DNA of 64,000 nt from Acidobacteriota bacterium (GTDB lineage: Bacteria; Acidobacteriota; Holophagae; Holophagales; Holophagaceae). A program made the position numbers and the translations under genes. The notes below the pieces were generated by a model that searched no databases, was not told where the DNA came from, and worked only from the letters and a program-made list of their open reading frames with translations. Position 1 is the first letter of the stretch. The number at the start of each line of letters is the position of its first letter. Below are positions 8,815-25,324 of this stretch, one piece after another. The DNA is taken from assembly GCA_016192145.1 (NCBI GenBank), contig JACPUT010000008.1, positions 62,001 through 126,000 on the forward strand, given 5' to 3'.

Positions 8815-9432
8815 TCAGGACATCCTCAGCAGTCCCCGCTTCACGACCGCCACCAGGGCCTGGGTGCGGTCCTTGACATCGAGCTTGGCGAGGATGTGGG
8901 TGAAGTGAGTCTTGAGGGTGTGAGGCGAGATGTCCAGTTGCCTAACAATGTCCTCGTTGGCGGTGCCTTGGGCGACCAGACGCATGATGTCCAGTTCGCG
9001 CTCCGTCAGGGGTTTCAGCCCCTCTCCGTACGGGATGGCCGCGGCGGCTTCCCGGGATACATGCAGGTCGCCGCGGGCTACGCCCTTGACGGCTGCGATG
9101 AGCTCGCGGCTCGGGTCGCTTTTCAGGAGGTAGCCCCGGGCACCTTGGGAGAGGGAAAGGGTCACATCGGCTTCCGTGGCGTAGGTGCTCAGGACGAGGA
9201 TCCGCGCTTTGGGATTCTCCTGGAGGAAGCGGGGGATGAGGGTCTTTCCATCCTGGTCGGGCAATTGCAGATCCAGGACGACGAGGCCGGGCGTGAGGCG
9301 CCGGAAGGCTTCGAGGGCTGCGCTACCGTCGGCAGCTTCCCCGACGATCTGAAGGCCGTGTTCCCGCCCCAGGATGGTGCGTAGACCTGCTCGCACCACG
9401 CTGTGATCATCGACGATGAGGATCCGGATCAT
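8815..9432 (-). CDS. NarL/FixJ-type response regulator
   Basis: A 205-residue two-component regulator. The receiver domain (residues 1-120) has the acidic pair Asp8/Asp9, phosphoacceptor Asp54 in VVLDLQLPDQDG, the Thr/Ser switch near 82-83 and Lys104. The C-terminal LuxR-type helix-turn-helix (about 138-200) carries LTERELDIMRLVAQG and the recognition-helix region ISPHTLKTHFTHI. All phosphorelay residues are intact. It is divergent from the sensor kinase at 9587, which is of the HisKA_3 type that pairs with NarL-like regulators. The shared upstream region of about 150 bases is a likely site of autoregulation. Targets are unknown; the surface gene to its left is one candidate. Confidence 0.93.
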   Translation of the reverse strand: MIRILIVDDHSVVRAGLRTILGREHGLQIVGEAADGSAALEAFRRLTPGLVVLDLQLPDQDGKTLIPRFLQENPKARILVLSTYATEADVTLSLSQGARGYLLKSDPSRELIAAVKGVARGDLHVSREAAAAIPYGEGLKPLTERELDIMRLVAQGTANEDIVRQLDISPHTLKTHFTHILAKLDVKDRTQALVAVVKRGLLRMS

Positions 9433-9586
9433 GGCGACCCCTCAAGAAGGACCGGAACGGCGACCCGTGTCTCCTTAACGGTTCGTGGAGGTTGAACCGA
9501 AAGAAGAAACGAACATCCGTTGGCATCGGGGGAGGGTCGCATTGTTTCCGGGGACATTCAAGGCATGGCGAAGGGAATGCGCCGGA

Positions 9587-12586
9587 ATGGCCGGGATCCT
9601 GTGGGTGCTTTTCCTGCTGGTTGGAGGTCCTGTTCCACTTTTCGGCAAGGAGCCACACCCTGATCCACCGGGGATCCCTTTCCTGCGCAGCTTCACTCCG
9701 AAGGATTATCACGCCGCTCCGCAGAACTGTGCCGTGGCGCAAGACCGCCGCGGGGTGATGTACTTCGGGAATTCGGACGGGGTGCTGGAATACGATGGCG
9801 CGCAATGGCGGCTGATCCCCACCACGCGGCGTACCGTGGTGCGTTCCCTGGCTTTGGGGAAGGACGGACGGATCTACGTCGGAGCCCAGGGTGAATTCGG
9901 TGTGCTGGCGCCGGATCCTTCGGGGCGTTTGGCCTTCGTTTCATTGCAGGACCGTGTGCCGGACCGTGATCGTAACTTCACGGAAGTCTGGCGAACCCTC
10001 ACCACGAGCCTGGGAATATTCTTCTCCACCGACGAGCGTTTGTTCCTGTTCGACGGGGCGCAGGTCCGGTCCTGGCGCCCAAGCAAGGCCTTTCATCTCT
10101 CCTTCGTGGTGAATGATCGTCTCTATGTTCAGGAGGTGGGACGGGGGCTGGAAATCCTGGAGGGTGAAATCCTGAAACCCCTGCTGGGAGGGGCGCGGTT
10201 TGATCGGGACCGGATCTTCGTGATGCTGCCCTGGGAGCCCGGCCGAATTCTGATCGGTACGCAACGAGGTGGGTTTCTGGTTTACGACGGGGCGACCTTC
10301 GCCCCCTTTCCCACGGAGGTTGATCGCTTCCTGAAGACCCACCTGCTTTACAACGGGTGCCTCCTGGCGGACGGGACACTTGCCTTGGCTACGACGCGCG
10401 GCGGGGCGGTCCTGCTGGACCGGAAGGGGAAGCTGGTTCGCGTGCTCGACGCAGATGTGGGGCTTCCTTCCGACGGGGTCTACGCCCTCTTTCCGGAAGC
10501 AGGACGCGGCCTATGGATGGCGCTCGCCCGCGGGATCTGCCGCGCCGAACTTCCTGCGCGGATGACGCAGTTCGACGCCCGCACCGGCCTTCGGGGTGCG
10601 GTCTATTCGCTCTGCCGTCATGAGGGCGTTCTGTACGCCGGAACCGGCACCGGCGTGTCCCGCCTGGGACCTTCGGGGTTCCGCCCCTTGGCCGGGATCG
10701 AGGGGCAGAGTTGGAATCTGCTTTCCACCGAGGATTCCTTGCTGGTCGCGAACAACCGGGGTGTCTACGAAGTCCATGGGGACCAGGTCCGTTTGGTGCG
10801 CCCCTGCGCCACCAATGCGCTCTCCTTGTGCCGGTCCCACGGGAACCCCGCGCAGGTCTATGTGGGCCTCTTGGACGGCCTGGCCGTCCTGCGGCAAGGC
10901 CGGGATGGTCATTGGCTCGACGGGGGCAAGGTTCCGGGCATTGGGGAACAGGTTTTCAGCCTCGCCGAAGCCGCGGATGGAAGCCTTTGGGCGGGCACCT
11001 TGGTCCAAGGAGTGCTTCGAATGGCGTTTCCGAAGGATCAGCCCACAGGCCCTCCGGTGGTCGAGCGCTTCGGGATCGCTCAGGCCCTGCCATCGATGAA
11101 TCACAACCTGGTCTATTCGGTGGGCGGCGATCTGCGGCTCGCCACCCATGCGGGCGTCTACCGTTACGATTCGCAGGCGAGGCGTTTCGAGGCCGACCCC
11201 CGCTTCGCCCGCATGTTCCCGGAAGGGCCGCGGTGGCTGAGCGTGCTCCGGGAAGGCAGGGATGGCCGCCTTTGGATGAATCCCGTGAACGAGCTCCAGG
11301 GACTTCGTGAGACAGGATTCGCGCTTCCTGAACCGGCGGGTTCCTTTCGTTGGGAACCCGTGCGATTTCCCTCCATGGCGGACTCGCCCATCGAAGCGAT
11401 CCTTCCGGAGAAGGACGGCGTGGTATGGCTCGGCGGACCGGAGGGGTTGTTGCGCTTGGATCCATCCGTCCCTGGCCCAGGGGGTGGGAGCTTCAAGGCC
11501 TTGATCAGGTCCATTACGGTGAATGGCGACCGGGTATTGCACGGAGGGGCGTTGGAGGCGGACCCCAAGTCCCAAATTTTGAGCCGATCCGAGAACGCCT
11601 TGCGCTTCGGATATTCCGCACCCTTTTTCGTGCAGGAATCCACAACCCGTTTCCGGTCTCTGTTGGAGGGGCTGGATCGACAATGGTCAACCTGGTCCGG
11701 GGACACCCGGCGCGAATACACCAATCTTCCACCGGGAAGCTACCGGTTCCGGGTTCAGGCGCAGAACGTCTACGGGCAGGTGAGCGAGGAGGACGTTTTC
11801 GCCTTCCGCATCCCGCGGCCCTGGTGGATGACGTGGTGGGCGCGCGGCCTCGGAGCACTGGCCATGGGGATTCCGGTCACGGGGCTCGCCTGGTGGGCTG
11901 TGTTCCGCTTCCGCCTGTGGCGCCTGACGACCGTCAACGCCGTGCTGCGGGAGCGCAATCGCATCGCCCGCGATATCCACGATGGGCTCGGCCACGGGCT
12001 CACGAGCATCGTCTTCCTTCTGCGATCCATGAAGCCGGAACAAGCTACGTCGGAATCGCCGAGCCATCAGGCACTGGAGGTGGCGGAGCGTACGCTGCTG
12101 GATGCCCGCGAGACCGCCCAGGCGTTATGGCCGAAGGCGCTCCGGGGAGGCCTGCAGGAAGCCCTCGTCGGCATGTGCAAAGGACTGGGACCGAGTGGTG
12201 TCGGGAGGGCATCCTTCCTGGGAGAACCTCGCCCCGTTCCCTTGGAAATGGAACGACAACTTTTCCGCATCGCCGAGGAGGCCACCTCGAACGCGCTGCG
12301 CCACGGCAAGGCGACCCGGATCGAGATCCGGCTGGTTTGGAAGGCGGATGCCGTCCAACTGGAAGTCCAGGACGATGGGAAGGGTTTCATCGGTGAAACA
12401 GCAGAAGGCATGGGCCTTCGGAGCATGCGCGATCGGACCTCCAGTCTGGGTGGGCACCTGACGGTGGTTTCAAAACCGGGCGAGGGAACGCTCGTCCAGG
12501 CTGTCGTTCCCATTCCATGGCTTTGGCGCCTCCGGCAAGGCCTTGACCTCCTTCGCCGCTTGGTCAGGACCCCGGGCCGCGAGTAG
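9587..12586 (+). CDS. Beta-propeller sensor histidine kinase (Reg_prop, Y_Y_Y, HisKA_3, HATPase)
   Basis: About 999 residues from the chosen ATG at 9587, which is followed at once by a signal sequence (GILWVLFLLVGG) and preceded by AAGGGA. A GTG at 9485 would add 34 charged residues in front of the signal. The periplasmic part is a two-component regulator propeller with repeated short blades such as WMALARG and LWAGTLVQG, then a Y_Y_Y domain ending in LPPGSYRFRVQAQN. One membrane span lies near 745-773. The cytoplasmic HisKA_3 box has the phospho-His at about 798 (RDIHDGLGHGL), followed by an HATPase with N-box near 895 and DDGKGF near 929. Unlike Bacteroides hybrid systems, no receiver is fused; the regulator is the divergent gene at 8815-9432. 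The family commonly senses glycans or their breakdown products. Confidence 0.9.
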   Translation: MAGILWVLFLLVGGPVPLFGKEPHPDPPGIPFLRSFTPKDYHAAPQNCAVAQDRRGVMYFGNSDGVLEYDGAQWRLIPTTRRTVVRSLALGKDGRIYVGAQGEFGVLAPDPSGRLAFVSLQDRVPDRDRNFTEVWRTLTTSLGIFFSTDERLFLFDGAQVRSWRPSKAFHLSFVVNDRLYVQEVGRGLEILEGEILKPLLGGARFDRDRIFVMLPWEPGRILIGTQRGGFLVYDGATFAPFPTEVDRFLKTHLLYNGCLLADGTLALATTRGGAVLLDRKGKLVRVLDADVGLPSDGVYALFPEAGRGLWMALARGICRAELPARMTQFDARTGLRGAVYSLCRHEGVLYAGTGTGVSRLGPSGFRPLAGIEGQSWNLLSTEDSLLVANNRGVYEVHGDQVRLVRPCATNALSLCRSHGNPAQVYVGLLDGLAVLRQGRDGHWLDGGKVPGIGEQVFSLAEAADGSLWAGTLVQGVLRMAFPKDQPTGPPVVERFGIAQALPSMNHNLVYSVGGDLRLATHAGVYRYDSQARRFEADPRFARMFPEGPRWLSVLREGRDGRLWMNPVNELQGLRETGFALPEPAGSFRWEPVRFPSMADSPIEAILPEKDGVVWLGGPEGLLRLDPSVPGPGGGSFKALIRSITVNGDRVLHGGALEADPKSQILSRSENALRFGYSAPFFVQESTTRFRSLLEGLDRQWSTWSGDTRREYTNLPPGSYRFRVQAQNVYGQVSEEDVFAFRIPRPWWMTWWARGLGALAMGIPVTGLAWWAVFRFRLWRLTTVNAVLRERNRIARDIHDGLGHGLTSIVFLLRSMKPEQATSESPSHQALEVAERTLLDARETAQALWPKALRGGLQEALVGMCKGLGPSGVGRASFLGEPRPVPLEMERQLFRIAEEATSNALRHGKATRIEIRLVWKADAVQLEVQDDGKGFIGETAEGMGLRSMRDRTSSLGGHLTVVSKPGEGTLVQAVVPIPWLWRLRQGLDLLRRLVRTPGRE

Positions 12587-12594
12587 GACAGCTT

Positions 12595-12605
12595 TTAAAG
12601 CAGGC
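12595..12605 (+). repeat. 11-base direct repeat, left copy
   Basis: TTAAAGCAGGC occurs here, 9 bases after the sensor kinase stop, and again at 14971-14981. The two copies bracket the DUF2924/recombinase/HTH cassette and nothing else. They could be the remains of a recombination core or target duplication; with only 11 bases chance is not excluded. Confidence 0.35.
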
Positions 12606-12678
12606 AAGAAAGGGCTTGAACCAAGTCCCCCGCAGAGCGTCCATGGACCACCCCAGGCGGGGATTTCGGAGGTGGTTG

Positions 12679-13218
12679 ATGGCGCAACGAGAGAAGGGCG
12701 AAGCTTTGGCCACGGAGGCGCGGGCGATGCGGGCGACGGTGGCGGCGCTGGCGGAATTGGAGGAGATGGGCCTGGCGGCCCTGCGGGAGCGTTACCGCGA
12801 GCTGTATGGGGAGGAGGCGCGTTCCAAGAACCTGCCCTACTTGCGGAAGAAGCTCGCGTTCCGCATCCAGGAGCGGGCTGAAGGTGGCCTGTCGCCCCGG
12901 GCGCGGGCGCGCCTCGTGGAGATCGGGCCCGCGGAACTGCCCGTGAAGGTCGCCCCCAAGCGCACCGTTCCTGCCCCTCGCCCTGTTGAGGCGAGGGTTC
13001 CCGCCAAGGATCGGGATGCGCGGCTGCCGGAGGCGGGAACGGTGCTGGTGCGGGAGCACAACGGCCTGGCCCACGAGGTGGAGGTGCGGGCGGAAAGCTT
13101 TCGCTACCGGGGCAAGGACTACCGCAGCTTGTCGGCCATCGCGAAGGAGATCACGGGCACGGCGTGGAACGGCTTTCTTTTCTTTGGCCTGACGGAACGG
13201 GGTTCCCATGGCCGCTGA
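12679..13218 (+). CDS. DUF2924 domain protein of a recombinase cassette
   Basis: A 179-residue protein from ATG 12679, chosen because GGAGG lies 6-7 bases upstream; an earlier ATG is less well served. The N-terminal half is helical and charged (LEEMGLAALRERYRELYG). The C-terminal half has the DUF2924 core: GTVLVREHNG, then YRGKDYRSLSAIAKEITGT and WNGFLFFGL. DUF2924 genes usually sit directly before serine recombinase genes in mobile or phage-derived segments; their biochemical role is not established, though the C-terminal motif resembles small DNA-binding modules. Its end overlaps the recombinase start by 11 bases, so the two are translated together. Confidence 0.85.
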   Translation: MAQREKGEALATEARAMRATVAALAELEEMGLAALRERYRELYGEEARSKNLPYLRKKLAFRIQERAEGGLSPRARARLVEIGPAELPVKVAPKRTVPAPRPVEARVPAKDRDARLPEAGTVLVREHNGLAHEVEVRAESFRYRGKDYRSLSAIAKEITGTAWNGFLFFGLTERGSHGR

Positions 13219-14509
13219 TGCCAAAGCCGCACCTCGCCTCCGTTGTGCCATCTACACGCGCAAGTCCACCTCCGCGGGATTGGAGAAGGATTTCAACTCT
13301 CTGGATGCCCAGCGGGAGGCCTGCGAGGCCTTCATCCGCAGCCGAGCTCTGGAGGGCTGGGAAGCGCTGGCGGAGGAGTTCTCCGACGGCGGCTTCACGG
13401 GCGCCAACACGGACCGTCCTGGGTTCCAGAAGCTGCTGGACCACGTGCGCCGACGCGCGGTGGACGTGGTGGTGGTCTACAAGGTGGACCGCCTGTCGCG
13501 CTCCCTGGTGGACTTCGCCCAGGTGATGGCGCACTTCAATCAGCACGGGGTCGCGTTCGTGAGCGTGACCCAGAACTTTTCCACGACGGATCCGGTGGGG
13601 CGGCTGACCCTGAACATGCTCATGAGCTTCGCGGAGTTCGAGCGGGAGATGATCACCGAACGCATCCGCGACAAGGTGCTAGCCCAGCGGCGCAAGGGCA
13701 AGTGGACGGGGGGCCACGCGCCCCTCGGGTACCTGGGAAAGGACCATCGGCTGCAGGTGGCGGAGGAGGAGGCTTCCTGGGTTCGGCAGGTATTCGCCTG
13801 GTACCTGGAGGGGCTGAGCGCCGTGTCCATCGCAGAACGGCTGAACGATGCGGGCGTGCCGTTGAAGAGTTCTTCGAAGCCTCGCCCCCGGCCGTGGACG
13901 AAGGACCTGGTGCTGCGGATCCTCCGCAATCGGCTCTACGTGGGGGAACTGCATTGCCGGGGGGAGTTCGTGGTGGCGGAGCACCCGGCCTTGGTCGAGT
14001 CGGAGGTCTTCGAGGCCGTCCAGCGGAAGCTGGAACCCAAGCGGCGGCGGGGCGAGGTGATCTCACTCAACCCCAGCTATCTGGTACGGGGAACGCTGGT
14101 CTGTGGCGCCTGCGGCGGCCGGATGACCAGCGCCTCCACCCACCGAGGAGAGCGCATCCACCGCTACTACCGCTGCAGCACGCGGGATAAGCGGGGAAAA
14201 AAGGCCTGCCCCACCACCCAGCTCCCGGCGGAGGCGCTGGAGCGGTTCGTGGTGGAGCACCTGCGGGCGGTGTTGACGGCCCCGGAGCAACGGGAACAGG
14301 CGAACCGCTGGATTCGGCGCGCCTTTCCGGAATTGCCGAAGACCCTCTCGGGTTTCGATGAACTGTGGAAGGCGCTGGATCTTCGCCATCGGCAGAGCCT
14401 GGTGCGACTGGTAGTGGAGGAGGTGCGGGTGGAGGAGCGGCGTGGCGCCTTGGCCATTCGCCTGCGGGATCTGCAGGCCCTGATGGACGGGCCGGAGGGG
14501 CGGCCATGA
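13208..14509 (+). CDS. Serine recombinase (resolvase, recombinase and zinc-ribbon domains)
   Basis: A 433-residue site-specific recombinase. The resolvase catalytic domain (residues 12-160) has the nucleophile Ser20 in YTRKST and the conserved Arg region VYKVDRLSRS. The recombinase domain (about 175-270) begins with APLGYL. The zinc ribbon (about 295-345) has the pair CGAC with a later Cys in YYRCST and another in KKACP. The N-terminal catalytic machinery looks complete. Related recombinases in DUF2924 cassettes carry, as I recall them, a C-terminal helix-turn-helix region that here is a separate overlapping gene (14506-14898). It starts inside the DUF2924 gene and overlaps the next gene by ATGA, giving a tightly coupled three-gene unit. 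Confidence 0.92.
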   Translation: MAADAKAAPRLRCAIYTRKSTSAGLEKDFNSLDAQREACEAFIRSRALEGWEALAEEFSDGGFTGANTDRPGFQKLLDHVRRRAVDVVVVYKVDRLSRSLVDFAQVMAHFNQHGVAFVSVTQNFSTTDPVGRLTLNMLMSFAEFEREMITERIRDKVLAQRRKGKWTGGHAPLGYLGKDHRLQVAEEEASWVRQVFAWYLEGLSAVSIAERLNDAGVPLKSSSKPRPRPWTKDLVLRILRNRLYVGELHCRGEFVVAEHPALVESEVFEAVQRKLEPKRRRGEVISLNPSYLVRGTLVCGACGGRMTSASTHRGERIHRYYRCSTRDKRGKKACPTTQLPAEALERFVVEHLRAVLTAPEQREQANRWIRRAFPELPKTLSGFDELWKALDLRHRQSLVRLVVEEVRVEERRGALAIRLRDLQALMDGPEGRP

Positions 14510-14898
14510 CGGAGATCGAGATCCCTCTCTTCCGCGTGCGCAAGGGATCCAAGGTGGGGTTCCAGGTCCAGGCGCAGGCACCGCCTCCGGTATCTTCGGC
14601 GGAGGGAGCCCTGTCTCCCGCCGCCCGGAGCCTGGCCCTGGGCCACCGCTGCGTGAAGGCGGTGGAGGCTGGGGAAGCTCAGGACTTCACCGATCTGGCC
14701 CGGAGTCTGGGCATCAGCCAGGCCCGGGTCTCGCAGCTCGTGGCCCTCACCTTCCTCGCCCCCGATATCCAGGAGGATCTCCTACAAGTCGCGCCGGGCA
14801 CGGAACGGCTGACGATCCATCACCTGCTGCTGGTGGCGCGGCGGTCGAACTGGAAGGAGCAGCGTGGGTTTTGGGCGGGGCTGCGCGGGGACAGGTAG
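14506..14898 (+). CDS. Helix-turn-helix protein resembling the detached C-terminus of the serine recombinase
   Basis: A 130-residue protein whose ATG overlaps the recombinase stop (ATGA at 14506-14509). Residues 62-95 form a ParB/phage-type helix-turn-helix (DLARSLGISQARVSQLVALT) followed by FLAPDIQEDLL and, near the end, NWKEQRGFW. This arrangement of HTH, FLAPDI and WKEQR matches what I remember as the C-terminal part of longer DUF2924-associated recombinases, and the opening residues (EIEIPLFRVRKG) would continue that linker. I therefore read it as a naturally split recombinase subunit in the -1 frame. An independent small regulator of the cassette is the alternative. No slippery run is seen at the junction. 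Confidence 0.75.
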   Translation: MTEIEIPLFRVRKGSKVGFQVQAQAPPPVSSAEGALSPAARSLALGHRCVKAVEAGEAQDFTDLARSLGISQARVSQLVALTFLAPDIQEDLLQVAPGTERLTIHHLLLVARRSNWKEQRGFWAGLRGDR

Positions 14899-14970: not shown

Positions 14971-14981
14971 TTAAAGCAGGC
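14971..14981 (+). repeat. 11-base direct repeat, right copy
   Basis: Second copy of TTAAAGCAGGC (first at 12595-12605). Its first three bases are the helicase stop codon (TAA on the - strand), so the last codons of the helicase could derive from the integrated site. See the left copy. Confidence 0.35.
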
Positions 14982-17900
14982 CCTTGCTCTGCCGGAGCTG
15001 TTCGCCATGCCTGAGGGCTTCCTCGAGTCTTGCGCGGCTCGCCCCGCTCAACCGGCCGAGACCGAGGCTTCGGGCGACGGTGATGAGGGCGTCAGCTTTT
15101 GGAAGCCCAGCCTCTAGATGCACGCTGCACAGGGAAGCCAGTTCCGGCATCGAGATCTCGTTGATGTTTCGATTCAAAGCGGCCGGGGCAAGCCTGGGGG
15201 GTACGAAACCGTCCATGCTGAGATCCTTGGACCAATAGAACCGGCCAACTTCCTCCCTGGTGGTCCTGCACCCGTGCGAGGCGAGCGCTTCCACTCTCGC
15301 CTGGATTTTGGCGCCTGTGCGCAACCAGCCATGCTTGCGTGCGATCAAGCGCGCAAGCCGTTCCTCATGGATGGGGCCCTCCTGTTGGACCAGGTCGGAG
15401 ATCATTCGAGAGAGCCTGTGGTCGTAGGTTGGGTCGAAGAAGCGGTCGGGATCGGCGGATGGGTCGAGGGCAAGAACATCCGGCCAGGGGGAGTCTGGCC
15501 CTTGGCTCGCACCTGGTTGGGCTAGGTCGCTTCGATTGGCGTAGATTCCCTGCTCTAGGGTTTCCGGGGCCAGGGGGAGCGATGTCTCCGCTCCCGGAGC
15601 GTCGTACGACTCCTCCAAGGCCGGTTCTTCGCGGTTCTTCCGCTTTGTCTGGCTATCCTCCAGGAGACCCTTCAGGCGAAGGTTCAAGGCTTCCAGCGTC
15701 GTCTCCGGGTCAATCCACCAGTCCGTAGACCATACCCGGAGGATCTCCCAACCGAGCCCGCGCAGGACGCTCTCACGAAGCTTGTCGCGATCGCGGGCAG
15801 TCGCGGAGCGGTGGTAGGTGGCGCCGTCGCATTCAATGCCCGCAAGGAAGGTCCCCGGAGCGTCGGGATGGACCACGCCAAGATCGATCCGGTAGGCGGA
15901 GACCCCAACCTGAGTGTGAATGGCCCACCCCTTGCGCTCCAAGGCCTTGGCCACGGATTCCTCAAAGGGGCTGTCGTAGCCCTCGCGCCCAAGTCGGCTC
16001 TCCTCAGCCAATGCCCTGGGCCCCCGTTCGGCGAAATCCAGGAAGTATTTCAGGTCGCGAACGCCGATCGCCTGAGTCCGGGACAAGTTGATCTGGTCGG
16101 CCCGGAGACTGGAAAAGACTCGGAGTTCTTGACGTGCGCGGGTGATCGCCACATTCAGGCGACGCTCGCCCCCGGCCCGGTTCATGGGGCCAAAGTTCAT
16201 GGAGATTGCCCCGGAGACGTCCGGCCCGTAGGTCATGGAGAAGTAGATGATGTCCCGCTCGTCACCCTGGACGCTTTCGAGATTCTTCACAAACACGGGT
16301 TCCAGCTCGGAGTCGGCAAAGTAGGGCTCGATCCATGGATGGTTACGGCGTTCCTCGTCCAGCAAATTCTCGATTAGGCTCTGTTGCTCGGCGTTGAAGG
16401 TCACGATGCCGACCGTGAATTTCGATCGGGTCTTCAACTGCTTAACCACATCGGCAACCACGGCCCGGGCTTCCATTTGGTTGATGCGTGCCCCGCCCTT
16501 CTCATAGACGCCTTGTATCGGGTTGTAGTTCACCGCCTTATCCCGGGTTACCGGGGAGGGGAAAGTCACCAGGCGACCACCGTAGTAATGGTGATTGGAG
16601 AAGGTGATGAGGCTCTCGTGCCGGCTGCGGTAATGCCAGTTCAGGTCGAGGGTCGGGAGATTGGCCCCCATGCATTCGTCGAGGATGCTCTCCAGGTCGT
16701 CCTCGACGTCCTCATCGTCGTTGTCGACGTCAGCCCGGTTGAAGAAATTCGTAGGCGGCAACTGTTTGGGGTCCCCCACCATCACCACTTGCTTGCCCCG
16801 GGCGATGGCGCCGATGGCGTCCCAAACGGGGATCTGGGACGCCTCGTCGAACACCACCAGGTCGAAGGCGTTCGAGCCGGCAGCCAAGTACTGAGCGATG
16901 GAGATCGGGCTCATCAGGAGGCAGGGTGCCAACTGGGTCAAGGCATCATGGGCCCGTTCCATCAGAGTCCGTACTGGCAGGTGGCGCTTCTTCTTGCTCA
17001 TCTCGTGGCGCAATTCGCCCCACCCAGAGTTCTTGGGGATCTGGTCGGGATGCGGAATACCGGAGCAGAGATTGGCACGGACCCAAGCGCGGGTCAGTTG
17101 GGTGAACTTGTCATCGAGCGTCCGGAAATCGCTGATGCGCTTCTCGTGCTCGGCCGAGACGAAGCTCCGAATGACATCCTCCTGGTCCACCACGGCGTTG
17201 ACCCACCAGCGGCAGTAATTCGTTTCGAAAATATCCCGAACCTTGGCGGACTCGATTCGCCCCTGTTCGACCGCCTCGGCCAACGACGCCAATCCCGCGT
17301 CCCTTGCCTGCTGCAGGGCGCTTTGCCATCCACACCAAGCACGTAGCCGGTGCTCGTGATCCATGATCGACCGGCAGCGGGAGGCCAGGTGGGTAGTGGA
17401 TTCCTTGAAGAGGGACTCCCTCACGGGATCGCCGATTCGTCCAGCGGCTACCAACGCCTCCAAGGCGGGGTGGAGGGGTGCCAAGGTGGCCTGATATTCG
17501 CGACCTTTAGTCCACGTCTCACCGGTGGGGGCGAGCAGGTGGTTGCCTAGGTGGAGCAAATGGTCCAGGGACTTCAACAGGATGGGAGCCACTTCCGAAT
17601 CGTTGGCGAGGCTGCCGAGGGCCCTTTGGATGTTGCCGATGAATGCGATGGCCCGCCGACCTTCCGCGAGGTCGGTCTTTAGGCCTTTCCAGAGGCCATG
17701 GGTGCCTTCCTCGAGATCTGCGTGCTCGGCGATCTGGCTCTCGATCTGCATCCGTTCCTGGAGCAGCCGGTAATCGTTACCCAATGCCTCTCCGCATTCC
17801 TTCCGACTTACCAGGGTGTGGTCCCCTGTGACCGGGCCAGACCCGCGGATGCTTTGAATCGCGGCCTGGAACTTCAGAGCGGCGTCAAGCCGATCCGGAT

Positions 17901-20900
17901 CGGTGGCCAGACCCTTCCAAAGACCATCGGCAGCCGCCTCCAACGGCAACTGGGCCACAGCGGCCTCAAGTTCGACAATGCGACGCATCGCGGACAACTG
18001 CTGCTGGAGCCGCTCTCCGCAACGGCCCTCTGCGACCCGTTCGAGTCCCATGTCCTCCCATTCATCCCCTTGCTTGATCGCGGAAAGCGCCGCCTGAAAC
18101 CTGAGCAGGGCGCGCAAATCATCCGGGTTGGTGCCACGACCGACCCAGATTCCGTCCGCGGCAGAGCCCAGGTCCAAGGTCGCCATCTTGTTGTGGATTG
18201 CGCGGATCTTCGCCAGGGTATGCACGTCTCTCGCGGCATCCGGAATCCCTTCTCCTTGGGCCACACTTGCCAGCACCCCGGCCACTCTCCTTTTCCGCAG
18301 CCAGGACATCGGCCAGAAGGACGCTTCGGCTTGATTCCAATCGCGCTGGAGCTGGAAGGCGTCAAGGCCATCCGCTTGCTCAGAGTAGGTGACGGAGAGG
18401 GTATCGGTCGCTTGGGTGGCGCTTTCAAGGAGCCCGAGTCCCTTTTTGATCTGCTCCAGGACGCCAGGGGTGTAGCCGACTCCGAGGTTCTCCAAGAGGC
18501 TTCGGCGTTGGGCCAGGAGATCCAGGCCCCGCTCGCAACTCCTAATGATCTCCTCGGACCAGGGTGGCGAGAGTCGGCGGTTCACATTCTGGTGCTGCTC
18601 AAGCAGGGCCAAACCTTGGCCAAGACGATCCGCGAGCGTCCCGGCGCCGGGTTGCAAGGCGAAGCGCCAGTCCCGGCCATGGGCCACCGGCAGGATGTCG
18701 ATCAGGTCGTTCATGCCGGAGCGAATCGGGCCCGTGAGGGGTAGGGCAGGCAGGCCTACGGCGGTCGTGAACCGCTGGTAGGCCGTATCGAGGGACTGAC
18801 AGGCCTGATCAAGGGCGCGAGCGGCTTCGATCAGTCGCTGCTGCCAGGTCGGGGACCATTCCGAGCTGAGAATGATCGCGAGCGGGTGCTGGTGGAGGTT
18901 GATCTGACCGACGGCATCGGCATTGATCGTCAGTCGATCAGCGAGTTCGCGCAGGTTCTCGAGCGTAGCTTCGTCATGAGAATTGGGTGAAGGCCAGGCG
19001 AAGCCAAGGTTGGGATGGGCGGCCCCCCCGATGATCTGGGCGATGGCGCGATAGAGCGTCCAGCCGTTGCGATGGCGTCGATGCATCCGCTCCACATAGT
19101 CGTTCAACTGCTCACGCAGGATGCGCAAGCGCTCAGCCTCGGCTTTCCAAACCGCCGCATCAACCGTTCCCCGGGCTTCCCAGGCCCCCTGAAGCTTTTG
19201 CAGAATGTCGAGCTTGCGGGCCTTGCTCGAGTGGATCTCCAGGCAGAATTCTCCAAGTCCAACCTCGCGCAGACGGCGGTGCACCACATCCAATGCGGCG
19301 ATTTTCTCTGAGACAAACAGGACCTTTTTGCCCTCGGCCAGGCATTGGGCGATGAGGTTTGCGATGGTCTGACTCTTTCCGGTCCCAGGAGGGCCGATCA
19401 GGACGAAATCCTTGCCCCGTGCTCCGGCCAGGACGGCGGAGAGCTGCGAGGAGTCGGCCTGCAGGGGACAGAACATCCGCGCTGGGTGAAACTCCCGATC
19501 GAGGTTCCTGGGGTCGGGGAAGGGGAGGCCAGACGGATAGGATTCCCTCGGAGTGTCGATCAGGTGGCGCACCACAGGGTTTTCCCTGAGCTTGTCGGTT
19601 CTTTCAGTGAGGTCCTTCCACATCAAGTGCTTGGCGAAGGAGAACATTGCAAGAGTCACGTCCTCGCTGACCTCCCACCCCCTGATGTCCCTGATGGCCC
19701 GTGAAACGGTCTTCCAGATGCCAGAGATGTCCAGGCCGGAGTCGTCCGTAGGCAGTTCCCCCTCGATGACTCCAAGATTCAGGCCGAAATCCTGGCGGAG
19801 CATCTCCAGCAGGGTCGGGTTGAAGCGTGGTTCGTCCTCGTGCAGAGACAGGGTGAACCCTGAGCGGACGCTGCGCCGGTTCAGGGTCACCGGGATCAGG
19901 ATCAATGGGGCGCGCAGGCGCTGGTTGGGCTTGTCCGCGCGGGTCCAGTGCAGAAAGCCCATGGCCAGGAATAGGGTGTTGGCGCCACCTTCTTGGAGGT
20001 TGTTGCGGGCCGTGCGGAACTGTTCCACGAGCCTGCCCTCCATCTCTTCCTGGGCGAGGCCGACGAAGATCTCCTTGCGACTCAAGGCATCCGTAGCGAG
20101 CCCGCGACGCACGTCCTCGCGGTCCCGGCCTTCATGGATGGCCTGATTTCTGTGATCGGCGCCCTCCATCAGGTCGGGTAGGGGCAGAAGCTTGAATGTC
20201 GCTCCAGCGGCGAGATGGTCTTCCAGCATCCCTGGATTGGGGACCTCCAACCGGATGGATTTCTTTCCCTCCTTGAAGTTCAGGAGATTGTTCCTCAGCG
20301 ACAAGTCCAGGAGTTTCCGCTGCCACCGCGCTAGGCGGTCCTTGGGGTCGAGTTCGGCGGTCGGGACCTCGGAGGCCTCCCCGTCCTCGGGAAGGTCCGG
20401 CGCTTCCTCGAAGGCGGGTGGAGGGGCGACCTGAACTGGCGGAGCGCCCTTTTCGTATGCAGCGGCCTCGGCGCTGGCCAGTGGCTTGATTCGGTGCATA
20501 CGGGCACGGTGGATGTCGACGGCGAGTTCGAAGGCATCGGCCTTGGATTCGGCAAGGTGATCCGCCCCCGCTTCGGTGGCGTACGAAAAGGCCGGAGCGG
20601 GATGACTGGTCAGGAGCGTGGTCTCGAACAGCACCAGTTCCTGCAATCGAATCCGCTTACGCAAGGCCGTAACGTCGTCCACCACCACGTTGGAGAACTC
20701 CTCCGAACGCAGCCAGACGCCGGCAAAGGCGTGCCCCTTGGTGAGGATGAGCACGGAATGGAGACCGGCCTGCTCACAGGCAGCGCAGAAGAACAACGCC
20801 AAGTCGAGGCAGGTGGCAAGCCCGGAGGCGAGCACTTGGCTGGGACCGCGGACCTTCTGTCCGGCGAATTCAAAGCTGGCGGGAGGAAGCGCGTAGGTGA

Positions 20901-21501
20901 TGTTGCAGGAGGCGAAGGCGCTCCAGATCGCCGAGGCGATTTCCCATGCCCGTTTAGTTCCTCCCTTGTAGCCATCGAGAGCCGAGTTCTTGTGGCTCTT
21001 TGCGAGGATGTCTGCGGCCTGCTTTAGTATTCGATCCACTGCGGGGTCATTGGGCTGGACGAAGGCCGCAAGCATCTCGGGCAGGTGGCCGATGCCCCCC
21101 CATTGGTTTCGCGGTAACAGTTCAACGCCGACTTCGAGCTGGGCAAGTGGCTCAGCCGCGGATCTTGAACCGAGCGTAAAGGTGACCTTGGCGGGTTCGG
21201 CTTCGGTCAATCGCAAGAAAACCGAGCCGTCCAGGGTGAGATCCAGGTCCGAAATCCGCAGGTGGTCCCCGGCTCCGAGGGCGTCCAGGTGCCACGTTTT
21301 GGGCCTGAGAAATGCGGGTTCTGAACCGATTACCAGTTCGAGCTCTGTGATTTCCCTATCGAAATCGTTGGAAACCCTCAGTTCCCGAATCAGCGGCACG
21401 GAGTTCTGGAAATCCGCGAGGTTAAGCCTCCCGGCGAGTACGGCTTCGATCCGCACGGCCGAATCGACTGGAACCCGTTCCTGTTCATTGTCCTGGGACA
21501 T
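14971..21501 (-). CDS. DUF4011/DUF3320-type superfamily 1 helicase with Vsr-like nuclease; candidate defence protein
   Basis: A 2176-residue cytoplasmic protein. An N-terminal beta-rich region precedes a transglutaminase-like segment near 225-265 (ATCLDLALFF, GHAFAGVW). The DUF4011 start (WQRKLLDLSLRNNLLNF) is near 390. The Upf1-like helicase has Walker A GPPGTGKSQ near 700, a long helical insertion (about 780-1480), Walker B FDEASQIP near 1550 followed by GDPKQLPP, and motif VI AITRARQEL near 1787. A PD-(D/E)XK Vsr-like nuclease spans about 1837-1937 (YRIDLGV, then GIECDG, then RDRDKLRESVL, then GWEILRVWSTDWW). A DUF3320-like winged helix (2027-2110) and a short helical tail finish it. All motifs look intact. 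Such proteins are often found in accessory regions and are suspected anti-phage or anti-plasmid factors; that role is inference here. It is convergent with the recombinase cassette and divergent from 21562. Confidence 0.85.
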   Translation of the reverse strand: MSQDNEQERVPVDSAVRIEAVLAGRLNLADFQNSVPLIRELRVSNDFDREITELELVIGSEPAFLRPKTWHLDALGAGDHLRISDLDLTLDGSVFLRLTEAEPAKVTFTLGSRSAAEPLAQLEVGVELLPRNQWGGIGHLPEMLAAFVQPNDPAVDRILKQAADILAKSHKNSALDGYKGGTKRAWEIASAIWSAFASCNITYALPPASFEFAGQKVRGPSQVLASGLATCLDLALFFCAACEQAGLHSVLILTKGHAFAGVWLRSEEFSNVVVDDVTALRKRIRLQELVLFETTLLTSHPAPAFSYATEAGADHLAESKADAFELAVDIHRARMHRIKPLASAEAAAYEKGAPPVQVAPPPAFEEAPDLPEDGEASEVPTAELDPKDRLARWQRKLLDLSLRNNLLNFKEGKKSIRLEVPNPGMLEDHLAAGATFKLLPLPDLMEGADHRNQAIHEGRDREDVRRGLATDALSRKEIFVGLAQEEMEGRLVEQFRTARNNLQEGGANTLFLAMGFLHWTRADKPNQRLRAPLILIPVTLNRRSVRSGFTLSLHEDEPRFNPTLLEMLRQDFGLNLGVIEGELPTDDSGLDISGIWKTVSRAIRDIRGWEVSEDVTLAMFSFAKHLMWKDLTERTDKLRENPVVRHLIDTPRESYPSGLPFPDPRNLDREFHPARMFCPLQADSSQLSAVLAGARGKDFVLIGPPGTGKSQTIANLIAQCLAEGKKVLFVSEKIAALDVVHRRLREVGLGEFCLEIHSSKARKLDILQKLQGAWEARGTVDAAVWKAEAERLRILREQLNDYVERMHRRHRNGWTLYRAIAQIIGGAAHPNLGFAWPSPNSHDEATLENLRELADRLTINADAVGQINLHQHPLAIILSSEWSPTWQQRLIEAARALDQACQSLDTAYQRFTTAVGLPALPLTGPIRSGMNDLIDILPVAHGRDWRFALQPGAGTLADRLGQGLALLEQHQNVNRRLSPPWSEEIIRSCERGLDLLAQRRSLLENLGVGYTPGVLEQIKKGLGLLESATQATDTLSVTYSEQADGLDAFQLQRDWNQAEASFWPMSWLRKRRVAGVLASVAQGEGIPDAARDVHTLAKIRAIHNKMATLDLGSAADGIWVGRGTNPDDLRALLRFQAALSAIKQGDEWEDMGLERVAEGRCGERLQQQLSAMRRIVELEAAVAQLPLEAAADGLWKGLATDPDRLDAALKFQAAIQSIRGSGPVTGDHTLVSRKECGEALGNDYRLLQERMQIESQIAEHADLEEGTHGLWKGLKTDLAEGRRAIAFIGNIQRALGSLANDSEVAPILLKSLDHLLHLGNHLLAPTGETWTKGREYQATLAPLHPALEALVAAGRIGDPVRESLFKESTTHLASRCRSIMDHEHRLRAWCGWQSALQQARDAGLASLAEAVEQGRIESAKVRDIFETNYCRWWVNAVVDQEDVIRSFVSAEHEKRISDFRTLDDKFTQLTRAWVRANLCSGIPHPDQIPKNSGWGELRHEMSKKKRHLPVRTLMERAHDALTQLAPCLLMSPISIAQYLAAGSNAFDLVVFDEASQIPVWDAIGAIARGKQVVMVGDPKQLPPTNFFNRADVDNDDEDVEDDLESILDECMGANLPTLDLNWHYRSRHESLITFSNHHYYGGRLVTFPSPVTRDKAVNYNPIQGVYEKGGARINQMEARAVVADVVKQLKTRSKFTVGIVTFNAEQQSLIENLLDEERRNHPWIEPYFADSELEPVFVKNLESVQGDERDIIYFSMTYGPDVSGAISMNFGPMNRAGGERRLNVAITRARQELRVFSSLRADQINLSRTQAIGVRDLKYFLDFAERGPRALAEESRLGREGYDSPFEESVAKALERKGWAIHTQVGVSAYRIDLGVVHPDAPGTFLAGIECDGATYHRSATARDRDKLRESVLRGLGWEILRVWSTDWWIDPETTLEALNLRLKGLLEDSQTKRKNREEPALEESYDAPGAETSLPLAPETLEQGIYANRSDLAQPGASQGPDSPWPDVLALDPSADPDRFFDPTYDHRLSRMISDLVQQEGPIHEERLARLIARKHGWLRTGAKIQARVEALASHGCRTTREEVGRFYWSKDLSMDGFVPPRLAPAALNRNINEISMPELASLCSVHLEAGLPKADALITVARSLGLGRLSGASRARLEEALRHGEQLRQSKGLL

Positions 21502-21561: not shown

Positions 21562-22296
21562 ATGAAATTCATGCTCGACACCGCCGCAATCCTTGCCGAC
21601 TATCGTGCCCTCCGTCCGGTTCAGCGCAGGATCGGAACCCTCGCCTCCAAGAAGATCGGCAAACCCGCCATCGAGTCCGGAGCCAAGGTTCTTGGGCTCT
21701 GGCAGCACGGGAGGCTGGTCCTTGAGGCCGAGGAAGAGATCAATGTGCTCCTCGATCATTTGATCCATGACGGACACGGAGGCCCCACTACGCCCCTTGA
21801 GCGGATCACGCTCCACCAGCTGACCGCGGTGGGGGGTGAAGGGTCACGCATTCATGCCGCCCTTTGCACGGCCCGGGTCAATGCCTTCCGGTTGGCGGAG
21901 CGCCTCCCCGGGTTGGGGTGGAGGGTCGAAGACATCTGGCATCATCGCTCCCGGGTGGTCGTGGACGAACTTCTGAGCGAACAGACCCAGCTGACCGACG
22001 CCGTCGCCGTGATGCGCCTCGTCGACCTGGGGGACTGGTGCTTCAGCACTGGCCTGCAGGGGCCCACGCTCGGGGACCGGAACCTGGAAACCCTCGAAGC
22101 GCTGCTGCTGGCGAGCCCCTTGGCGGGCATCGCGCCGACGAATTTCCATCCCGAGTCCTTCACGCGAAGCCAGAACCTGCTGTGGTCGAGATGCCTATTG
22201 AGGGCCTGGCTACGGCCTGGGAGCGTGAAGCTGGTGACCTTTCCCATTGAGATCGGCCCCGGTGGGAGGAAGGCGAAGCTCTGGAAGGGAAGGTAG
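21562..22296 (+). CDS. Protein of unknown function, divergent from the helicase-nuclease
   Basis: A 244-residue protein, mainly helical and without signal peptide or membrane span. It starts at ATG 21562; TTG 21550 and ATG 21571 are alternatives and none has a clear ribosome-binding site. Visible features: a basic N-terminal segment (RRIGTLASKKIGKP), a HLIHDGHGG loop, a second half rich in Trp and Leu (WRVEDIWHHRSRVVVDELL), and a basic tail (GGRKAKLWKGR). I do not recognise the family. Only about 60 bases separate its start from that of the helicase-nuclease, so they share a promoter region and may be co-regulated or act together. It is followed by 260 empty bases and then a tRNA. Confidence 0.6.
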   Translation: MKFMLDTAAILADYRALRPVQRRIGTLASKKIGKPAIESGAKVLGLWQHGRLVLEAEEEINVLLDHLIHDGHGGPTTPLERITLHQLTAVGGEGSRIHAALCTARVNAFRLAERLPGLGWRVEDIWHHRSRVVVDELLSEQTQLTDAVAVMRLVDLGDWCFSTGLQGPTLGDRNLETLEALLLASPLAGIAPTNFHPESFTRSQNLLWSRCLLRAWLRPGSVKLVTFPIEIGPGGRKAKLWKGR

Positions 22297-22590: not shown

Positions 22591-22667
<77 letters not shown>

Positions 22668-23371: not shown

Positions 23372-25324
23372 ATGCGCCGTTGCCTCGCCCTGCTGTTCTC
23401 GCTGATGCCCTTGATGGCCACGCCCCGCAACGGCACGCCGGAGAAGTGGTTCCCGAAGCCCCTGAGCCCGCGGATCGCGAATTACGTGATCAATGGGAGC
23501 CTGAACTGGGAACAGAAGGTGCTGGATGGCACCGAGACGATCACCTGGCGCAACGCGGGCACGGCGCCCACGAAGGAATTTCCGCTCCACCTGTACCTCA
23601 ACGCCTTCAAGGGGCCCCAGAGCCGTTTCGTGAAGGAGAGCGGCGGCAAGCTGCGGGGGGATCAGATGGCGAACCCGGCGGAACCCTCCAGCTGGGGCTA
23701 CTGCCGGCTGCTCAGCGTGAAGGTGGATGGCAAGGTGGTGGGCGGAACGCCGGGGGAAGACGAGACGGTGTATTGGGTGAACCTGCCCCGCGCGGTGGCG
23801 CCCGGGGAGACGATCCAGGTGGAGATCGCCTGGCAGAGCCGCTTTCCCAAGGTGTTCGCCCGCTCGGGCTACTCGGGCAACTTCCTCATGGCGGGCCAGT
23901 GGTTCCCCAAGGTGGGGGTCTACCAGGGTGCCAGCTGGAACTGCCATGCCTACCATGCCTTCACGGAGTTCTTCTCCGACTTCGGCACCTACGACGTGAC
24001 GCTCGCCGTGCCGAACTCGCTGTTGGTGGCCACCACGGGCACCCCAGTGGAGACGCGGGGGCCCGATGGCCAGATGTACGAGGCCATGGAGGATCCCAAG
24101 AATCCCAAGATCCACATCTGGCGCATTCACGCGGAGGACGTGCACGATTTCGCCTTCGCCGTGCGGCCCAAGCTGGATTGGGATTGCCACGTGTGGGAAT
24201 ACCGCGAGGTGGAGGTGAAGTACTACACCCAGAGCAAGACCAGCTCGAACATCTACCGGCAGAAGCGGGCCGTGGAGGCGGCCCTGCGACTCTCCCAGGA
24301 GTGGTACTTCAAATACCCCTATCCCACGCTGACGGTGATCGATACGCCGGAGGGCGCCGAGGGGGCCGATGGCATGGAGTACCCGACGCTGATCACCGCG
24401 GGGTCGGTGCCCTTCGATCCTTTCGAGTATCGGGAAGCACCGGAGCTGGTGTCCGTGCATGAGTTCGGCCACCAGTACTTCTACGGGATGCTGGCCAGCA
24501 ACGAGTTCGAGGAAGCCTGGCTGGATGAAGGCCTGAACAGCTGGTTCACGCACAAGGTGATGGATACGACCTATCACGGCCTGTTGCCGAGCCGCCGCCT
24601 CCACATCCCCACGGATTTCGGAGAATGGGCGGGCTACTGGACGGGCCCCAGCAGCGATCCGCTCACGGTGGTGAGCTTCAAGGCGCGGGATTGGAGCAGC
24701 TACGGGCGCGTGGCCTATGCCAAGCCCACCATGGTGCTGAATCAGCTGGAGGCGCTGCTGGGCCGGCCGCTCATGGAGCAGGTGCTGCGGACCTACACGG
24801 AGGAGATGAAGTTCAAGCACCCCACCCGGGGCGACTTCCGCCGCGTCGCGGAACGGGTATCGGGTCGGGATCTCACCAAGTTCTGGCAGGACTTCGTGGA
24901 AGGCACCGACGTGCTCGACTACGCCATCCACCGGGTGGAAGCGCGGGAGGTCCAGCAGGGTGGCTGGATGGAGGGCAAGGATGGCGTGGTGTTCGCAGCC
25001 CCGCAGCAGATCTCGCCGGGCCGTACGGGCCGCGTGACGCTGGCCCGCAAGGGCGGCATCACCGCTCCCATCACGCTCTGGGTGCGTCTGGAGAACCGCG
25101 AGGAACGGCGCGTGACCTGGGATGGCCAGGATCGCTGGGCCACCTTCGACTTCGATAGCCCCGTGGCCGCGGCGGTGCTGGATCCCGATGGCAACCACCC
25201 CATGCTCAAGGATCGGCTCCATGCCTCCTGGCTGCCCAAGCCCCCCAGCCGGGGGCTCCATTACTGGGCCCAGTTGGCCTGGGGCGGTTTCATTGGGCTG
25301 CTGCAGTCGGCGGGCGTGGCCTGA
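23372..25324 (+). CDS. M1 family zinc metallopeptidase (aminopeptidase-like), exported
   Basis: A 650-residue protein with a short signal peptide (RRCLALLFSLMPLMA) and an N-terminal beta-sandwich (about 35-260). The gluzincin catalytic site is HEFGH at about 363-367, with the third zinc ligand Glu386 exactly 18 residues on (NEFEEAWLDE). EGADGMEYPTL near 328-340 stands where the family has its GAMEN substrate-binding loop, so it is divergent and suggests a peptidase other than classical PepN. The C-terminal 150 residues include a helical region and an Ig-like end. It most likely acts in the periplasm on peptides; specificity is unknown. Confidence 0.88.
   Translation: MRRCLALLFSLMPLMATPRNGTPEKWFPKPLSPRIANYVINGSLNWEQKVLDGTETITWRNAGTAPTKEFPLHLYLNAFKGPQSRFVKESGGKLRGDQMANPAEPSSWGYCRLLSVKVDGKVVGGTPGEDETVYWVNLPRAVAPGETIQVEIAWQSRFPKVFARSGYSGNFLMAGQWFPKVGVYQGASWNCHAYHAFTEFFSDFGTYDVTLAVPNSLLVATTGTPVETRGPDGQMYEAMEDPKNPKIHIWRIHAEDVHDFAFAVRPKLDWDCHVWEYREVEVKYYTQSKTSSNIYRQKRAVEAALRLSQEWYFKYPYPTLTVIDTPEGAEGADGMEYPTLITAGSVPFDPFEYREAPELVSVHEFGHQYFYGMLASNEFEEAWLDEGLNSWFTHKVMDTTYHGLLPSRRLHIPTDFGEWAGYWTGPSSDPLTVVSFKARDWSSYGRVAYAKPTMVLNQLEALLGRPLMEQVLRTYTEEMKFKHPTRGDFRRVAERVSGRDLTKFWQDFVEGTDVLDYAIHRVEAREVQQGGWMEGKDGVVFAAPQQISPGRTGRVTLARKGGITAPITLWVRLENREERRVTWDGQDRWATFDFDSPVAAAVLDPDGNHPMLKDRLHASWLPKPPSRGLHYWAQLAWGGFIGLLQSAGVA

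What the first reader, a model, noticed from the sequence alone, without database searches (positions are those of the whole stretch)
14971..21501. Very large helicase-nuclease as a candidate single-gene defence system
It combines a transglutaminase-like segment, DUF4011, intact SF1 helicase motifs, a Vsr-like nuclease and a DUF3320-like winged helix, and it sits beside a recombinase cassette. This mix and setting fit an anti-phage or anti-plasmid protein. The 700-residue helical insertion between Walker A and B is unusual and could be the sensor.
Basis: partly seen in the sequence, partly recalled or inferred. Interest (0 to 1): 0.6.

Follow-up and report, generated by a model that had tools for sequence, protein, structure and literature searches.

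The report
ProA-family anti-phage helicase-nuclease on island
A giant bacterial protein that couples a DNA motor to a DNA-cutting domain belongs to a family already named as anti-phage (ProA); it arrived on a mobile island beside a tRNA gene, so it is a new carrier of a known defence, with one structural oddity worth testing.

Summary
It is a full-length member of the curated NCBIfam equivalog 'anti-phage protein ProA' (NF058533, 2306.9 bits, cut-off 1500) and of PADLOC candidate PDC-S37. It is related to Hhe but is not Hhe (874 bits, cut-off 2000). So the candidate defence idea is right, but already on record. Of 77 genomes in its order only this one passes the ProA cut-off; relatives (40-61% identity) are mostly Proteobacteria, and 381 plasmids carry homologues. 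It is accessory and horizontally spread, with no conserved partner gene. In the window it lies between a DUF2924/serine-recombinase/HTH cassette and the 3' end of a tRNA-Met gene. In relatives that tRNA is an integration hotspot, and one relative has the cassette at the same tRNA without ProA. The roughly 760-aa helical insert between Walker A and Walker B is family-wide, not special to this gene. What I found no prior description of: it holds two kinds of tandem helical repeat (29 aa and 76 aa) whose copy numbers match across homologues (3/3, 2/2, 1/1), suggesting a layered stalk. Only two copy-number changes occur on the tree. No activity was tested.

The parts
14971..21501 (-). proA-family gene, 2176 aa, intact
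   Evidence: ORF; NF058533 2306.9 bits (cut-off 1500), aa 27-2150 over the whole model; PDC-S37 1241 bits
21118..21456 (-). N-terminal beta-sandwich (aa 16-128)
   Evidence: AF2 model; weak Foldseek matches incl. CARDB domain 3idu
20497..21081 (-). transglutaminase/protease-like domain (aa 141-335) with C231, H257, D276
   Evidence: Pfam score below cut-off
19798..20316 (-). DUF4011 (aa 396-568)
   Evidence: Pfam PF13195 166 bits
19372..19395 (-). Walker A / motif I (aa 703-710, K709)
   Evidence: invariant in 72/72
16930..19215 (-). all-helical insert in RecA1 (aa 763-1524)
   Evidence: AF2; K709-D1552 distance 843 here, 622-1015 in 45 homologues
18379..18639 (-). three 29-aa A repeats (aa 955-1041)
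   Evidence: one helix each
17500..18183 (-). three 76-aa B repeats (aa 1107-1334; W-x-G-x-x-T at 1119, 1195, 1271)
16834..16848 (-). Walker B / motif II DEASQ (aa 1552-1556)
   Evidence: 72/72
15682..15966 (-). MTES_1575 Vsr-like PD-(D/E)XK nuclease (aa 1846-1940; E1847, D1873, E1890, D1892)
   Evidence: Pfam 120.5 bits; conservation
15301..15447 (-). DUF3320 (aa 2019-2067)
   Evidence: Pfam
12616..13218 (+). DUF2924 gene of the recombinase cassette
   Evidence: Pfam PF11149 143 bits
13208..14509 (+). large serine recombinase (Resolvase + Recombinase + Zn ribbon)
   Evidence: PHROG integrase
14506..14898 (+). small HTH-like protein of the cassette
   Evidence: phrog_14161 'recombinase'; conserved with the recombinase in L113
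21562..22296 (+). divergent ORF of unknown family, not a conserved partner of ProA
   Evidence: no Pfam or PHROG match; no tblastn match in 80 genome and 7 plasmid ProA loci
22591..22667 (-). tRNA-Met, right boundary and integration hotspot
   Evidence: conserved next to the M1 peptidase in relatives
23372..25324 (+). core M1-like peptidase, conserved right flank
   Evidence: 71 of 77 genomes

Best explanation
The gene encodes a ProA-family single-protein anti-phage (anti-foreign-DNA) system carried on a small integrated island at tRNA-Met. Most likely mechanism: an SF1 motor of the UPF1/SMUBP2/Dna2 kind engages invading DNA, the long helical stalk that grows from RecA domain 1 (between motifs Ia and II) contacts a substrate or trigger, and ATP-driven movement brings the C-terminal Vsr-like nuclease, next to the DUF3320 segment, onto DNA that is then cut. 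The N-terminal transglutaminase/cysteine-protease-like domain keeps its Cys-His-Asp residues and either gates the enzyme or acts as a second effector. Shown here: family membership, intact motifs, accessory distribution, island setting, insert architecture. Inferred: defence by this particular protein, the DNA substrate, the role of the stalk and of the protease-like domain.
For: Equivalog-level match to 'anti-phage protein ProA', full length; homologues from Klebsiella, Mesorhizobium, Sphingomonas and Methylococcaceae also exceed that cut-off. Motor, nuclease and TG-like catalytic residues are conserved across 72 homologues. Sequence and fold matches to IGHMBP2, Senataxin, UPF1 and Dna2. Only 1 of 77 genomes in the order passes the cut-off while relatives at 40-61% identity lie mostly in Proteobacteria; the window sequence branches among proteobacterial sequences. 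381 plasmids carry homologues, 213 of them typed conjugative. No recurrent neighbour, and defence genes such as Gabija, Wadjet, Dsr2, AbiE and AbiJ types among neighbours. Hotspot with and without cargo.
Against: No assay was run, and the primary paper behind the ProA name was not found in the held library. Only a few of 100 scanned neighbours are clear defence genes and no background rate was measured. A large DUF4011 gene is a core gene flanking a defence hotspot in P. aeruginosa (PMC10250203), so some relatives may have a housekeeping role. The ends of this particular island are not mapped: the tRNA sequence is not duplicated in the genome.
Confidence: 0.78

Rival explanations
1. A housekeeping or stress-response DNA-repair helicase-nuclease (Dna2-like) that happens to sit next to a mobile element.
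For: The motor resembles UPF1/SMUBP2/Dna2; a DUF4011 gene is core in P. aeruginosa (PMC10250203).
Against: Absent from 76 of 77 genomes in the order, on many plasmids, in differing neighbourhoods, and matched by a curated anti-phage equivalog.
Confidence: 0.08
2. A weapon of the mobile element against competing plasmids or elements rather than phages.
For: Carriage on plasmids and integrated islands.
Against: The family is curated as anti-phage; carriage by mobile elements is normal for anti-phage genes too.
Confidence: 0.12
3. A two-gene system with the divergent ORF 21562-22296 as partner or regulator.
For: The two start codons are only 60 bp apart, head to head.
Against: No homologue of that ORF near any of 87 ProA loci, none in the order, only 24% identical partial matches on Piscirickettsia plasmids.
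Confidence: 0.05
4. Abortive defence in which the transglutaminase/protease-like domain is the killing effector and the helicase-nuclease is the sensor.
For: Conserved Cys, His and Asp and a protease-like fold.
Against: The nuclease residues are at least equally conserved; no toxicity data.
Confidence: 0.12

Closest known systems
ProA anti-phage protein (NCBIfam NF058533; PADLOC PDC-S37)
   Same: Full-length match far above cut-off; same domain order.
   Different: The window protein has three A and three B repeats in the insert; homologues with one of each, closer in length to the 1,903-position model, also pass the cut-off.
Hhe (NCBIfam NF042953; PADLOC Hhe)
   Same: DUF4011, SF1 helicase and Vsr-like nuclease region aligned at 606-874 bits.
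   Different: Below the Hhe cut-off of 2000 bits. That Hhe is an experimentally tested defence is my recollection (Gao et al. 2020), not checked here.
IGHMBP2/SMUBP2, Senataxin, UPF1, Dna2 SF1 helicases
   Same: Helicase core sequence and fold.
   Different: None has a helical insert of about 760 aa at this place, nor the DUF4011/DUF3320/TG-like parts (from knowledge of these proteins).
Mokosh (MkoA/MkoC) helicases
   Same: Weak match over the second RecA domain.
   Different: No full-length relation.

Membership tests
ProA (NF058533) | Curated equivalog score of at least 1500 bits | tested here: met
   2306.9 bits over model 1-1903
ProA (NF058533) | Complete architecture with intact motor and nuclease residues | tested here: met
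ProA (NF058533) | Anti-phage activity | not testable with these tools
   needs an assay; originating paper not found
Hhe (NF042953) | Curated equivalog score of at least 2000 bits | tested here: not met
   874.4 bits
Vsr endonuclease | Best nuclease family is Vsr | tested here: not met
   Best match is MTES_1575 REase, 120 bits; DUF559 weak
Transglutaminase-like superfamily | Pfam gathering score and Cys-His-Asp residues | tested here: inconclusive
   15.9 bits against cut-off 23; residues conserved; fold matches weak
tRNA-targeted integrative island | Recombinase next to a tRNA with variable cargo in relatives | tested here: met
tRNA-targeted integrative island | Direct repeats (att sites) at both ends | tested here: not met
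   No tRNA-end repeat in window or genome; serine recombinases need only short cores, so ends remain undefined

The most novel reading that the evidence does not exclude
The insert between Walker A and Walker B is a two-strand helical stalk built in layers, each layer one 29-aa A unit on the outgoing arm and one 76-aa B unit on the returning arm, so that the copy numbers are locked together; its length or tip sets what the defence protein recognises, making it a modular sensor inside an SF1 motor.
Probability: 0.25. Interest if true: 0.55.

Novelty: new member of a known kind. Interest (0 to 1): 0.33.

Why it matters
It extends a curated but little-documented anti-phage family to an order in which no other of 77 genomes passes its cut-off, shows it as cargo at a tRNA-Met integration hotspot, and gives a concrete structural hypothesis (coupled A/B repeat layers in the motor's insert) that can be tested by shortening the stalk one layer at a time. 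If true, it would give a way into how large helicase-nuclease defence proteins tell foreign DNA from self.

Tried and rejected
Defence partner next door: ORF 21562-22296 has no counterpart at other ProA loci and is rejected as a conserved partner. ORF 12595-13251 (-) first looked like a cassette gene because it matched at L113, but the matching frame there holds stops; the real gene is DUF2924 on the other strand. Direct-repeat ends of the island: none found. Conserved left flank in relatives: none, the left side is variable, so the left end of the island is not defined. Hhe membership: rejected by cut-off. E. coli carriage: a Klebsiella plasmid homologue has no megablast match in 5,426 E. coli genomes. 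Viral contigs: no relative found with the close-relative search. Literature: the only DUF4011 paper of use was PMC10250203; no ProA or PDC-S37 paper was found in the library.

Full report
What is there. The reading frame at 14971-21501 on the minus strand codes for 2,176 aa without interruption. The whole protein matches the NCBIfam equivalog NF058533 'anti-phage protein ProA' at 2306.9 bits against a curated cut-off of 1500, aa 27-2150 over the full model, and PADLOC candidate PDC-S37 at 1241 bits. It matches Hhe at 874 bits against a cut-off of 2000, so it is a relative of Hhe but not Hhe. Pfam gives DUF4011, an SF1 helicase, the REase family MTES_1575 and DUF3320. The transglutaminase-like part scores below Pfam's cut-off; a confident model and the conservation of C231, H257 and D276 support it, while the fold matches to transglutaminases and TG-like cysteine proteases are weak.

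Conservation. In an alignment of 72 near-complete relatives the Walker A, Walker B and later motor motifs and the nuclease residues E1847, D1873, E1890 and D1892 are invariant or nearly so. Conserved positions (at least 95%) make up 49 of 93 in the first motor segment, 116 of 306 in the second, 45 of 95 in the nuclease, but 0 of 87 and 2 of 228 in the two repeat regions of the insert. The insert is therefore the fast-changing part of an otherwise constrained enzyme.

The insert. From K709 to D1552 there are 843 residues here and 622-1015 in 45 sampled relatives. AlphaFold models aa 763-1524 as helices throughout. Foldseek on the model that contains it finds the SF1 cores of Senataxin, IGHMBP2, UPF1, Aquarius and Dna2; no solved structure stood out for the insert. 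The place of the insert, after motif Ia and before motif II, corresponds to subdomain 1C of UPF1-like helicases (established knowledge, not computed). A regular motif, W-x-G-x-x-T, recurs at 1119, 1195 and 1271 with a spacing of 76. Profile searches with the two unit types find three 29-aa A units and three 76-aa B units in the window protein and in the 842-852 class, two and two in the three relatives of the 732-738 class, and one B with one or no detectable A in the 622-634 class; shuffled inserts give no hits. The profiles were built from the 3/3 class, a few very weak extra hits were not counted, and A matches in the shortest class are weak. The steps in length (about 112 and 108) are close to one A plus one B (105). 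On the tree this comes down to two changes, so the link between A and B rests on few events. The reading that the two arms run side by side in layers is inference; coordinates of the model could not be inspected.

Distribution. Of 77 genomes of the order, all in one family, only the window's own passes the ProA cut-off. Eighty relatives in the genome collection at 40-61% identity lie mainly in Proteobacteria, and the window protein branches among beta- and gammaproteobacterial sequences, on a long branch and with modest support (0.60 for the nearest node, 0.96 for the next). Plasmid records with a match number 381, 213 typed conjugative, with 35 covering at least 80% of the query in one place. 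The tested homologues from Klebsiella, Mesorhizobium, Sphingomonas and Methylococcaceae exceed the ProA cut-off.

Neighbourhood of homologues. No gene family recurs at most loci. Among 100 near neighbours PADLOC finds Gabija GajA, Wadjet JetA and JetD, Dsr2, AbiEi, a reverse-transcriptase-associated and a CARF type protein and several candidate families; annotated plasmid regions show an AbiJ-NTD4 protein, a UvrD-helicase/ATPase pair, a TIR protein and a YhcG nuclease nearby. A pair resembling YhaO and YhaN lies next to ProA at five loci (L074, L089, L092, L146, L147). No background rate was measured, so enrichment is not claimed.

The island. Left of ProA are DUF2924, a large serine recombinase and a small HTH-like protein. 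To the right is tRNA-Met at 22591-22667 with its 3' end facing the island. An M1-like peptidase beyond the tRNA is present in 71 of 77 genomes, and in all 20 relatives inspected over a longer stretch it is still next to tRNA-Met, while no gene on the other side of the tRNA is shared by more than 4 of 21. In G051 (L113) a homologous recombinase (68%) and HTH protein (48%) sit directly at the tRNA without ProA. In L117 and L122 a full-length tRNA-Met copy brackets segments of 7.8 and 6.6 kb, each with a tyrosine integrase beside the copy. So the tRNA is an integration hotspot used by several kinds of element. In the window the tRNA has no second copy in the genome, and the left end of the island could not be placed.

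Judgement. It is a new carrier on a new island, not a new kind of system. Defence by this copy is inferred from family membership, distribution and intact motifs; the mechanism (motor-driven DNA engagement and cutting, stalk as contact or sensing part, protease-like domain as gate or second effector) is a hypothesis. The coupled repeat layers are the most original observation here and deserve a focused test, with the caution that two evolutionary events are few.

Noticed in passing
L117:9828-17804 and L122:11122-17865: At the same tRNA-Met site two relatives carry islands of 7.8 and 6.6 kb bracketed by identical full-length tRNA-Met copies, each with a tyrosine integrase; one has a 'Beta protein' family gene and an IrrE-like peptidase, the other a Prim-Pol protein.
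   Followed up: partly
L146:3156-7877, L147:3862-8588, L089:5206-9908, L074:5117-9815, L092:12327-17143: A YhaO/YhaN-like (SbcD/SbcC-like) gene pair lies next to ProA at five loci, mostly alphaproteobacterial.
   Followed up: partly
window 12616-14898: DUF2924, serine recombinase and HTH-like protein form a compact cassette; its recombinase occurs in few genomes of the order and at other places too.
   Followed up: partly
window 1659-8495 (-): 2,278-aa protein with PA14, Ig-like, glucodextranase B and Laminin_G_3 domains, probably a surface or secreted protein.
   Followed up: no
window 8815-12586: LuxR-type response regulator divergent from a large sensor kinase with Reg_prop propeller and Y_Y_Y domains; not found at the tRNA-Met site of relatives.
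   Followed up: no
window 21562-22296 (+): 244-aa ORF with no family match, 60 bp head-to-head from ProA; only faint similarity to Piscirickettsia plasmid proteins.
   Followed up: partly
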